Part shown: piece by piece, positions 21,012 through 24,222 of the stretch
Layout: every line of letters starts with the position of its first letter
Numbering within the stretch: the stretch's first letter is position 1
Assembly: GCF_030816195.1 (NCBI RefSeq)
Contig: NZ_JAUSXS010000001.1
Span: 62,001-126,000 of the forward strand
Source: Pseudomonas sp. W4I3
GTDB lineage: Bacteria; Pseudomonadota; Gammaproteobacteria; Pseudomonadales; Pseudomonadaceae
Length of the DNA: 64,000 bases
Reading direction: 5' to 3'
Program-made: the position numbers and the translations under genes
Notes under the pieces: model-generated
Seen by the model: only the letters and a program-made list of their open reading frames with translations
The model's database searches: none
Told to the model about the DNA's origin: nothing

Positions 21012-22817
21012 TTAGTAAGCCAGGCCGAAGTCCTCTTCTTTCATGTCCATCAGGTTGCTGGCGCCCGACAGCATGGTTGCTACGTGGGTGCGGGTACGCG
21101 GCAGGATGCGCTGGAAGTAGAAGCGCGCGGTCTGCAGCTTGGCGGTGTAGAACGCCTCTTCGGAGGTACCGGCAGCCAGTTTCTCAGCCGCCAGGCGCGC
21201 CATGTCGGCCCAGAAGTAAGCCAGGCACGCGTAACCGGAGTACATCAGGTAATCCACCGAGGCGGCACCGACTTCTTCACGGTCTTTCATCGCGGCCATG
21301 CCGACCTTCATGGTCAACTCGCCCCACTCTTTGTTCAGCGCCGCCAGCGGTGCAACGAACTCATTGACCGCGTCATTGCCTTCGTTGGCCTGGCAGAACT
21401 TGTGGACGATCTTGGTGAAGCCCTTGAGCGCTTCGCCTTGAGTCATCAGCACTTTACGGCCCAGCAGGTCGAGCGCCTGGATACCGGTGGTGCCTTCGTA
21501 CAGCATCGAAATACGGCTGTCGCGAACGTTCTGCTCCATGCCCCACTCGGCGATGAAACCGTGGCCGCCGTAGATCTGCACACCGTGGTTGGCTGCTTCA
21601 AAGCCGACTTCGGTCATGAATGCCTTGGCGATCGGAGTCATGAAGGCCAGCAGGCCATCGGCCTGTTTCTTGGCTTCGTCGTCGGTGCCGTACTTGACGA
21701 TGTCCACTTGCTTGGCGGTGAAGTACACCATCGCACGGTTGCCTTCGGCGAAGGCTTTCATGGTCAGCAGCATGCGGCGCACGTCTGGGTGCACGATGAT
21801 CGGGTCGGCGGCTTTGTCCGGCGCTTTCGGGCCAGTCAGGGAGCGCATTTGCAGGCGATCGCGAGCGTATTTCAGGCCACCCTGGAAACCGATCTCGGCG
21901 TGGGCCAGGCCTTGCAGCGCAGTACCCAGGCGAGCGGTGTTCATGAAGGTGAACATGCAGTTCAGGCCTTTGTTCGCCGGGCCGATCAGGTAACCGGTGG
22001 CCGCGTCGAAGTTCATCACGCAGGTAGCGTTGCCGTGGATGCCCATCTTGTGTTCCAGGGAGCCACAGGTTACCGCGTTGCGCTCACCGATCGAGCCATC
22101 GGCGTTCGGCAGGAACTTGGGCACGATAAACAGCGAGATGCCTTTGGTGCCGGCCGGTGCGTCGGGCAGGCGGGCCAGTACGATGTGGACGATGTTGTCG
22201 GCCATGTCGTGTTCACCGGCCGAGATGAAGATTTTGGTGCCGGAGACTTTGTAGGAACCGTCGGCCTGAGGTTCGGCCTTGGTGCGCAACATGCCCAGGT
22301 CGGTGCCGCAGTGCGGCTCGGTCAGGCACATGGTGCCGGTCCACTCGCCCGAGACCAGTTTGGTCAGGTAGGCCTCTTGCTGCTCAGGCGTACCGTGCTC
22401 GGAAATGGTGTTCATCGCACCGTGGGACAAGCCTGGGTACATGCCCCACGACCAGTTGGCTTCGCCAACCATTTCACTCACGGCAAGGCCCAGGGATTCC
22501 GGCAGGCCTTGGCCGCCGTGCTCAACGTCGTGGGCCAGGCTTGGCCAGCCGCCTTCGACGAACTGTTTGTAGGCTTCCTTGAAACCCGCAGGGGTTTTAA
22601 CGCCTGACTCGCTCCAGGTACACCCTTCGATGTCACCCACGCGGTTCAGCGGTGCCAGCACTTGCTCACAGAACTTGGCGCCTTCTTCGAGAATGGCGTC
22701 AACCATGTCCGGCGTAGCGTCCTGGCAAGCCGGCAGGCTTTGATAGTGCGCTTCATAGCCGAGCAGTTCGTCACGAACGAAGCGAATATCACGCAAGGGG
22801 GCCTTGTAGTCAGGCAT
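21012..22817 (-). CDS. Acyl-CoA dehydrogenase, paralogue 3 (PA0506/FadE1-like)
   Basis: A 601-residue acyl-CoA dehydrogenase starting [20 protein letters not shown], with [28 protein letters not shown] and [16 protein letters not shown] intact (Thr replaces the Asn of the other copies). ATG 22817 aligns with its paralogues. Its position beside the small hypothetical and bioD matches P. aeruginosa PA0506, reported as a long-chain fatty acyl-CoA dehydrogenase and a PsrA target. The overlapping PsrA-like boxes 60-90 bases upstream support fatty-acid control of this copy specifically. Confidence 0.92.
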
Positions 22818-22877
22818 AGCGATAAACCTCTGCTGATGTATCTGGGATGAACAACCGCGTGGATGCGTCAGGGCGGT

Positions 22878-22904
22878 CAAACAGGTGTTTGAAACATACG
22901 TTTA
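22878..22904 (-). promoter_or_regulatory. Two overlapping PsrA-type operators
   Basis: CAAAC-AGGT-GTTTG (22878-22891) and GAAAC-ATAC-GTTTA (22891-22904) share one base. The first fits exactly the published PsrA consensus (G/C)AAAC-N2-4-GTTT(G/C); the second misses only the last base. PsrA is the long-chain-fatty-acid-responsive TetR regulator of pseudomonads. The rest of the 336-base gap (22818-23153) holds a REPIN and nothing else recognised. Confidence 0.72.
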
Positions 22905-23037: not shown

Positions 23038-23128
23038 ATGTGGGAGGGGGCTTGCTCCCGATGGCGGTAGGTCAGCTATGAATAAGCTGACTGATAAACC
23101 GCTCTCGGGGAGCAAGCCCCCTCCCACG
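23038..23128. repeat. REPIN
   Basis: ATGTGGGAGGGGGCTTGCTC at 23038 and the inverse copy ending CCCCCTCCCACG at 23128 flank the inner arms GTCAGCT and AAGCTGAC. It is close in sequence and spacing to the copy at 20826. Confidence 0.92.
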
Positions 23129-23153: not shown

Positions 23154-23435
23154 TCAGGCGTAGGTGTCGATCAGCGTACCGAGCATTTCGTCCGAAGCCT
23201 TGGCGACTTTCGCGCCCAGCTCCACTTGAAACTTGCCCTGGGCCATCTCGACCATATTGCTCGCCGAGTTGGACGCCTGAGCGCGATCGTTGGCCTGCAG
23301 ACGGTCGCTTTGCGCGGCCGATGGCTGGTTCGTTGCGGCGCTGGCAATGTTGCCGGCGGCCTGGTCGACACGGTTCTGCCCGGCCTGAATCGTACTCAGG
23401 CCCGAATAAAACGCGCTGCTTCCAGAGATTTCCAT
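23154..23435 (-). CDS. Small protein resembling fused ends of flagellar rod/hook proteins
   Basis: A 93-residue protein, present as a conserved hypothetical beside bioD in P. aeruginosa (PA0505, from memory). Residues 8-33 (AFYSGLSTIQAGQNRVDQAA, then GNIASA) resemble the N-terminal helix of FlgB/C/E/F/G rod and hook proteins, which typically contains a GL-x(n)-NIAN signature. Residues 61-90, with AKVAKASDEMLGTLID, resemble their C-terminal helix. Between them is only a polar Ala/Gln/Ser-rich linker. No signal peptide or membrane segment is seen. Rod proteins reach the flagellar export gate through these ends, so an export substrate or axial-protein mimic is possible; function is otherwise unknown. 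Confidence 0.8.
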   Translation of the reverse strand: MEISGSSAFYSGLSTIQAGQNRVDQAAGNIASAATNQPSAAQSDRLQANDRAQASNSASNMVEMAQGKFQVELGAKVAKASDEMLGTLIDTYA

Positions 23436-23541
23436 GGCGTAAGCCTGCCTTTAGAGAATCGTGAAGGTGGATTGAAGCAGACATCCTGGCAAAAGGCCCG
23501 TCAAAAACGCTAATGGCATATTGCCTTAGCGATAGCCAAAA

Positions 23542-24222
23542 TCAGTCAAGCAGGTCCATTTCCAGGTATGCCGCCACAGCGCTTGCCCCGGCATGCTTGA
23601 GTTTCGGCACGCGGCCCAGGCAAGGCGCCGGCAAACGCTCGGCCAACGTGGCGAGGTTTTCTTCCAGACGAGAGGTCTTCGGGTCGATGATATTGGCCAC
23701 CCAACCGGCCAGCGGCAAACCATCTCGTGCGATCGCTTCGGCCGTGAGCAGTGCATGGCTGATACACCCCAAGCGCACGCCCACCACCAGAATCACCGGT
23801 AGCTTGAGCGCAATGGCCAGGTCCGACAGATTGGACTGGTCGGCCAAGGGCACGCGCCAACCGCCGGCGCCTTCGATCAAGGTGAAGTCGGCGTTATGCG
23901 CCAGGATCCGCTGCATCGGCTTGAGCAGCGATTGTACCGTCAGCGCGACACCCGCCTCACGGGCGGCCAGGTGCGGCGCAATCGCCGGCTCGAACGCCAC
24001 CGGGTTGACCTCGGCATACGTCAACGGCAATGAACATTCAGCGAGCAGCGCCAAGGCATCGGCATTGCGCAACCCCTTGGGCGTTATCTGGCAGCCCGAC
24101 GCTACGGGTTTTCCCGCCGCCGTGCTTTTGCCGGCTTGGCGCGCAGCATGCAGCAGGCCGGCGGCGACGGTGGTCTTGCCCACATCGGTGTCGGTACCGG
24201 TGATGAAATACGCAGCGCTCAT
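23542..24222 (-). CDS. bioD: Dethiobiotin synthase
   Basis: A 226-residue ATP-dependent enzyme closing the ureido ring of dethiobiotin from DAPA and CO2 (EC 6.3.3.3). The P-loop [10 protein letters not shown] is at residues 8-17, and [10 protein letters not shown], the conserved second motif, follows. It is the last gene of the bioBFHCD run and overlaps bioC by four bases. A 106-base gap separates it from the rod-like small gene. Confidence 0.95.

What the first reader, a model, noticed from the sequence alone, without database searches (positions are those of the whole stretch)
23154..23435. A 93-residue protein that looks like a flagellar rod/hook protein with the middle removed
The N-terminal segment (GLSTIQAGQNRVDQAAGNIA) and C-terminal segment (AKVAKASDEMLGTLID) match the paired terminal helices of axial rod/hook proteins, joined by a short polar linker. 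It is far from any flagellar gene and conserved beside bioD. It could be a type III-exported small axial protein, a rod plug, or a chaperone mimic. I know of no described function.
Basis: partly seen in the sequence, partly recalled or inferred. Interest (0 to 1): 0.7.

Follow-up and report, generated by a model that had tools for sequence, protein, structure and literature searches.

The report
Ends-only hook protein with flagellar ties
A 93-residue Pseudomonas protein of unknown function looks like a flagellar hook protein reduced to its two end helices, and distant relatives often sit beside a protease gene whose Campylobacter member needs the flagellum to appear outside the cell, so it may belong to an unnoticed set of late flagellar exports.

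Summary
The ORF is real: 93 aa, minus strand, 23154-23435, found in 173 of 198 Pseudomonadaceae genomes searched, with conserved ends and a variable linker. Its C-terminal helix is homologous to the FlgE/FlgG C-terminal helix (hhalign 95-96% for FlgE, 78-87% for FlgG). The N-terminal match is weak (10%, FlgE, in register). The model is two helices. "Hook protein without its middle" is therefore largely right; "a rod plug" is not supported.

Relatives add a stronger link. In other genomes of the class the same small gene lies beside a PF12118 zincin gene at 30 of 81 PF12118 loci. In two genomes of one genus a full-length FlgE-like paralogue takes that place. Sigma-28-like promoters are enriched upstream of these genes in distant relatives, but absent in Pseudomonadaceae. 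A Campylobacter PF12118 protein was in supernatants only with an intact flagellum (published). P. aeruginosa PA0505, the orthologue by gene order, was captured at the cell surface (published). The family follows flagella: 0 of 7 flagellum-less Pseudomonadaceae carry it.

Best reading: a D0-only axial protein exported late by the flagellar type III apparatus, partner of an exported zincin elsewhere, alone in Pseudomonas. Export and role are untested.

The parts
23154..23435 (-). 93-aa ends-only axial-type protein (stop codon included)
   Evidence: ORF; family in 173 of 198 Pseudomonadaceae genomes; alignment A1
23331..23423 (-). N-terminal helix, residues 5-35 of the model; weakly matches the FlgE N-terminal helix
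   Evidence: AlphaFold2 helix 5-35; hhalign columns 8-33 to FlgE 2-27, 10%
23319..23330 (-). break between the helices (residues 36-39); in the family the stretch around residues 33-55 varies most in length
23160..23318 (-). C-terminal helix, residues 40-92 of the model; residues 56-90 match Flg_bbr_C
23471..23481 (-). conserved promoter-like element TCTGCTTCAAT, 36-46 bases before the ATG
   Evidence: pattern found in 47 of 60 Pseudomonadaceae loci and 0 of 48 other loci; upstream rows; the sigma-70 scan found nothing here
23503..23531 (-). hairpin and U-run after bioD, terminator-like; separates the small gene from the bio operon
   Evidence: fold -12 kcal/mol, z -2.41, 4 of 200 shuffles as good; not listed by the terminator scan
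23542..24222 (-). bioD (neighbour, not part of the system)
   Evidence: synteny in 46 of 55 loci; name from family knowledge
21012..22880 (-). acyl-CoA dehydrogenase-type neighbour (not part of the system)
   Evidence: synteny in 55 of 55 loci; name from family knowledge

Best explanation
It is a D0-only paralogue of the flagellar hook/rod proteins: the D1/D2 middle has been replaced by a short linker, leaving the two terminal helices that in FlgE and FlgG pair as the inner tube of the axial structure. Shown here: C-terminal homology to FlgE/FlgG, a two-helix model, tight association with flagella, and in distant relatives linkage to a PF12118 zincin gene, sigma-28-like promoters, and one case of a full-length FlgE-like paralogue in its place. 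Shown by others: a Campylobacter PF12118 protein depends on the flagellum for its presence outside the cell, and P. aeruginosa PA0505 can be captured at the surface of intact cells. Inferred: the protein is exported by the flagellar type III apparatus, after the hook-basal body is complete in the lineages with sigma-28 promoters. It then either docks by its two helices on the inner or distal face of the hook, or leaves the cell; where PF12118 is present it positions or escorts that zincin. In Pseudomonadaceae the zincin was not found in the two genomes searched for it, the promoter is different, and the small protein acts alone as a minor axial or surface protein.
For: C-terminal homology: Flg_bbr_C in 18 of 24 members at E <= 1, best 5.5e-5; profile against PDB sequences gives 6 hits at E <= 10, all FlgE, FlgG or FlgK, best 0.0021; hhalign FlgE 95-96%, FlgG 78-87%, above all of 60 column shuffles each; sixth-best Flg_bbr_C place of the genome. 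Two helices 5-35 and 40-92. Flagellar association: 68 of 74 class genomes with a small ORF have FlgG against 132 of the other 295, p 1.6e-14; 0 of 7 FlgG-less Pseudomonadaceae have it, 173 of 191 with FlgG do; the 10 Pseudomonadaceae genomes of genera g10 and g17 whose FlgG is only 57-58% identical to ours lack it, while 18 carriers sampled have FlgG 77-85% identical. PF12118 partner: 26 small genes within 2 kb of PF12118, 26 of 26 on the same strand, 23 first, plus 4 found later, all upstream on the same strand; FlgE-like paralogue in that place in L259 and L260. Sigma-28-like promoter score >= 10: small gene 11 of 35, other genes 1 of 49, shuffles 21 of 1050, p 1.9e-4; PF12118 genes without a small neighbour 7 of 33, shuffles 25 of 990; FlgE-like paralogues 2 of 2. 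Export: PMC5223770 (abstract and passages); PMC3511353 (passages).
Against: No export experiment on this protein exists here. The N-terminal match is weak (hhalign 10% FlgE, 0.1-0.5% FlgG, FlgF, FlgC, FlgB) and Pfam Flg_bb_rod is not hit. Foldseek of the model against PDB gave no match and pTM is 0.31. No Pseudomonadaceae locus of 56 has a sigma-28-like promoter by the same score. PF12118 is absent from this genome. Three class genomes carry the small gene without FlgG or FlhA (G278, G295, G560), although each has a FlgG-bearing congener in the sample. Eighteen FlgG-bearing Pseudomonadaceae lack it, 8 of them outside g10 and g17. The PMC5223770 authors show flagellum dependence, not passage through the flagellar channel.
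Confidence: 0.5

Rival explanations
1. Cytosolic mimic: the protein uses its hook-like ends to bind a chaperone, the export gate or the substrate-switch machinery and so times export, without leaving the cell.
For: Same homology and flagellar association as the best explanation. Small size, no D1, and not confined to flagellar gene clusters.
Against: Surface capture of PA0505 (PMC3511353; that study also caught cytosolic proteins such as ribosomal proteins). Neighbour family PF12118 is flagellum-dependent in supernatants (PMC5223770). A FlgE-like paralogue with D1/D2-type domains can take its place, which suits an axial rather than a regulatory role.
Confidence: 0.2
2. Secreted adaptor or remnant of a flagellum-exported zincin system: its real job is to carry or regulate PF12118 proteases; in Pseudomonadaceae it is a leftover or has found another client.
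For: 30 of 81 PF12118 loci in the class have the small gene within 2 kb on the same strand (15 of the 81 not inspected for missed copies); co-occurrence within FlgG-bearing genomes, p 5e-5.
Against: The small gene occurs without PF12118 in 32 of 74 genomes and is strongly conserved in Pseudomonadaceae, where the two genomes searched lack PF12118. A leftover would not keep both ends and a promoter element.
Confidence: 0.2
3. Coincidental two-helix protein without common descent from axial proteins.
For: N-terminal match weak; short helical sequences give chance matches; best Pfam score below the curated cut-off.
Against: Only flagellar axial proteins were hit in PDB sequences; FlgE C-terminal score 54.7 against a shuffle maximum of 16.9; genomic association with flagella.
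Confidence: 0.07

Closest known systems
FlgE (flagellar hook protein)
   Same: C-terminal helix homologous over about 40 residues; N-terminal helix aligned in register; two paired terminal helices form D0 in FlgE (PMC5288503, passages)
   Different: No D1 or D2; 93 against 436 residues in this genome; lacks the asparagine-rich NNIAN signature in most members; own locus
FlgG (distal rod protein)
   Same: C-terminal helix match, hhalign 78-87%
   Different: No D1; N-terminal helix not matched
FliE (small proximal axial protein)
   Same: About 100 residues, helical, an axial flagellar protein exported by the type III apparatus (recalled; FliE paper seen in a listing only)
   Different: No FliE family match in the Pfam scan at E <= 10
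PF12118 SprA-related zincins (C. jejuni CJM1_0395)
   Same: Neighbour gene in many relatives; sigma-28-like promoters; flagellum-dependent presence in supernatant (PMC5223770)
   Different: A different protein, with HExxH; a partner, not a homologue; absent from the window genome

Membership tests
Rod/hook axial proteins (FlgE/F/G type) | C-terminal helix of the Flg_bbr_C type | tested here: met
   hhalign FlgE 95-96%, FlgG 78-87%; Pfam E 5.2e-4 but 19.9 bits, below the cut-off of 23
Rod/hook axial proteins (FlgE/F/G type) | N-terminal helix of the Flg_bb_rod type | tested here: inconclusive
   no Pfam match; FlgE 10% in register, 0 of 60 shuffles reach it; others 0.1-0.5%
Rod/hook axial proteins (FlgE/F/G type) | D1 domain (and D2 in FlgE) | tested here: not met
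   no room and no match; so it is not filed as a FlgE or FlgG
Rod/hook axial proteins (FlgE/F/G type) | export by the flagellar type III apparatus and assembly in the axis | not testable with these tools
   no experiment; PA0505 surface capture is only suggestive
FliE | FliE family profile | tested here: not met
   Pfam scan at E <= 10 lists only Flg_bbr_C
PF12118-linked small axial protein (family defined here) | conserved ends and variable linker | tested here: met
PF12118-linked small axial protein (family defined here) | PF12118 gene beside it | tested here: not met
   absent from the window genome; met in 30 other loci
PF12118-linked small axial protein (family defined here) | sigma-28-like promoter | tested here: not met
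   0 of 56 Pseudomonadaceae loci; 11 of 35 distant loci

The most novel reading that the evidence does not exclude
Many flagellated Gammaproteobacteria carry an undescribed late flagellar export module: a D0-only hook paralogue made with the sigma-28 regulon and exported through the flagellum together with a PF12118 zincin, so that a protease is delivered or held by a miniature axial protein. Pseudomonadaceae kept only the miniature axial protein.
Probability: 0.35. Interest if true: 0.75.

Novelty: new variant of a known kind. Interest (0 to 1): 0.6.

Why it matters
Flagellar axial proteins are usually thought of as one fixed set. A widespread extra member stripped to the D0 helices would show what D0 alone can do, and would give a handle on non-flagellar export through the flagellum. 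The link to PF12118 makes a testable pair out of two orphan families, one of which is already known to depend on the flagellum in Campylobacter. For Pseudomonas it turns an unnamed gene beside bioD into a specific, checkable motility hypothesis.

Tried and rejected
Rod plug: rejected as first choice, because in distant relatives the promoters are of the late type, after rod assembly (established knowledge). FliE membership: no Pfam match. Mobile element or phage origin: no plasmid match at E 1e-5 and none in viral contigs (14 pattern matches, none confirmed). Part of the bio operon: a terminator-like hairpin separates it from bioD and 9 of 55 Pseudomonadaceae loci have the gene without bioD near. 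Sigma-28 control in Pseudomonas: 0 of 56. The Pseudomonas element TCTGCTTCAAT: a genome scan with TCTGSTTCAATNNNNG gave one other place, but that pattern asks for a G which our own site lacks, so it does not test a regulon. Foldseek against PDB: no matches. Literature on the orthologues by locus tag: PA0505 in one paper; PFLU0447 turned out to be a chemotaxis protein and is unrelated; the other tags gave nothing useful.

Limits of the counts. The 74 small-ORF genomes are the rows that one search listed (its list stops near E 4e-5) with an open frame of at most 150 codons; G269 (frame 623) was dropped and four rows match only the C-terminal part. PF12118 loci: 81 rows in 80 genomes; 26 adjacent, 40 more fetched and inspected, 15 not inspected. 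L259 and L260 come from one genus (g115), so they are one observation rather than two. The promoter threshold of 10 was read off a table of thresholds after the scan (at 9: 19 of 35, 13 of 49, 216 of 1050; at 11: 4 of 35, 0 of 49, 3 of 1050), and the 49 control genes are uncurated ORFs of 200 aa or more. Four of the 7 FlgG-less Pseudomonadaceae are one genus (g13). PF12118 proteins starting MxI[STN] like the small protein: 14 of 37 against 6 of 112 ORFs, a soft result, since internal starts were allowed and two loci appear twice.

Full report
What is there. The window holds a 93-aa ORF at 23154-23435 on the minus strand, ATG to TGA. Close relatives by name are Pseudomonas fluorescens-group strains, up to 98% identical (420 candidate relatives, the best 80 kept, all titled Pseudomonas). 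It is present in 173 of 198 Pseudomonadaceae genomes (168 by single sequence, minus G009, plus 6 by profile; G056 not retested). The plasmid and viral searches found none. Alignment of 24 diverse members shows a conserved start (MxISxSAFxxGLxxIQxGQxRVDQA), a linker of variable length, and a conserved end (ADEVLGTLIDTxA) with an invariant last alanine.

Is it a hook protein without its middle? For the C end, yes. Pfam Flg_bbr_C matches residues 56-90 with E 5.2e-4, below the curated cut-off; 18 of 24 members match at E <= 1. A profile of the family against PDB sequences gives six hits at E <= 10, three FlgE, two FlgG and one FlgK, and nothing else; best E 0.0021. Against alignments of orthologues that I assembled, hhalign gives FlgE 95.0% (full) and 96.4% (C half), FlgG 78.3% and 87.3%, FlgF 17-20%, FlgC 2-4%, FlgB 0.1%. 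Column shuffles reached none of the four C-half scores tested (0 of 60 each). In the whole genome the ORF is the sixth-best Flg_bbr_C place after the five rod/hook-type places. For the N end the case is weak: FlgE 10.3%, residues 8-33 on FlgE 2-27, 0 of 60 shuffles as good, and nothing from FlgG, FlgF or FlgC (17, 57 and 14 of 60 shuffles as good). AlphaFold2 gives helices 5-35 and 40-92, mean pLDDT 76, pTM 0.31, and Foldseek finds no PDB match. In FlgG and FlgE the terminal helices pair as a coiled coil in D0, the C-terminal one about 33-35 residues (PMC5288503, passages).

Surroundings. It lies after bioD and before an acyl-CoA dehydrogenase-type gene; of 55 other Pseudomonadaceae loci, 46 have bioD and 55 the dehydrogenase within reach. 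A terminator-like hairpin follows bioD, and an element TCTGCTTCAAT lies 36-46 bases before the ATG; its pattern is found in 47 of 60 Pseudomonadaceae loci and 0 of 48 others. It therefore looks like its own transcription unit. No sigma-28-like site was found in 56 Pseudomonadaceae loci.

Flagella. All seven Pseudomonadaceae genomes without FlgG also lack FlhA and none has the gene by profile, while 173 of 191 with FlgG do. Of the 18 FlgG-bearing genomes without it, 10 are genera g10 and g17, whose FlgG is only 57-58% identical to ours, the level seen in other families. Eighteen carriers sampled have FlgG 76.7-84.8% identical. So the gene may go with the native flagellum rather than with a replaced one. 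The other 8 lack it for no visible reason. Across 369 genomes of the class, 74 have a listed small ORF, 68 of them with FlgG (p 1.6e-14). Of the six without FlgG, three have FlhA; G278, G295 and G560 have neither, though each has a FlgG-bearing genus mate in the sample.

The partner. In distant relatives the same small gene stands beside a gene of PF12118, the SprA-related family of predicted zincins (Pfam E 1e-28 to 1e-44 for the six tested; zincin prediction in PMC3650047, passages). Of 81 PF12118 loci in 80 genomes, 26 have the small gene within 2 kb, all on the same strand, 23 with the small gene first. Four more were found among 40 further loci fetched, all upstream on the same strand. 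In two genomes of one genus the place is taken by a 396-aa protein with FlgE_D2, D1, Flg_bbr_C and Flg_bb_rod matches, besides the FlgE-like place near flgG. In L166 and L168 a BioH-like hydrolase is also near. The window genome has no PF12118.

Promoters. A simple score for TAAAG/TCAAG - 13 to 16 - GCCGATA, run on 120 bases upstream, reaches 10 or more for 11 of 35 distant small genes, 1 of 49 other genes in the same loci and 21 of 1050 shuffles (p 1.9e-4 against the control genes). It does so for 7 of 33 PF12118 genes without a small neighbour against 25 of 990 shuffles, and for both FlgE-like paralogues. This points to the late flagellar regulon in those lineages.

Published facts. CJM1_0395 of C. 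jejuni, a PF12118 protein, was absent from supernatants of flgG mutants in strains M1 and 81-176; the authors call it a good candidate for secretion by the flagellar apparatus and report that growth and motility of the mutants were like wild type (PMC5223770, abstract and passages). PA0505 of P. aeruginosa was among proteins captured from outside on intact cells and had no known localisation (PMC3511353, passages; the same study also caught ribosomal proteins). That PA0505 is the orthologue rests on gene order: PA0504 is bioD (PMC12407999, table passage); its sequence was not seen.

Mechanism, with what is shown and what is inferred. Shown: C-terminal homology, helical ends, flagellar association, the PF12118 link and promoters in relatives. 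Inferred: export through the flagellum, since both neighbours in the module are flagellar by descent or by published behaviour; timing after hook completion where sigma-28 promoters occur; docking on the hook by the D0 helices or release outside. I put about 0.5 on export as a D0-only axial protein, 0.2 each on a cytosolic mimic and on a zincin adaptor or its remnant, and the rest on other things. The genome also has further type III export-gate genes, so an injectisome route is not excluded.

Novelty. In the paper searches I ran I found no description of this protein family or of its link to PF12118; the library lacks most subscription journals. The protein is a new variant of a known kind, axial flagellar proteins; the pair with PF12118 would be new if confirmed.

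Noticed in passing
23040-23059 and 23108-23127: Perfect 20-base inverted repeat with 48 bases between the arms, GC-rich, downstream of the gene; REP-like in look (name recalled); one arm is also listed as a terminator-like site.
   Followed up: partly
G000:C1:1458095-1459300 and 1459476-1460036 (outside the window): Two pieces of a FHIPEP (FlhA/SctV-type) gene, apparently split, besides two intact-looking copies elsewhere in the genome.
   Followed up: no
Genera g10 and g17 of the family (L205-L207, L211-L216, L256, L257): FlgG only 57-58% identical to that of the other Pseudomonadaceae, as if the flagellar system had been replaced.
   Followed up: partly
L259:584-1774 and L260:632-1822: A second FlgE-like protein beside a PF12118 zincin gene, away from the main flagellar genes.
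   Followed up: partly
PF12118 genes of L263, L270, L288, L289, L290, L297 and others: Many PF12118 proteins begin MxI[STN], as the small protein does; possibly a shared export signal.
   Followed up: partly
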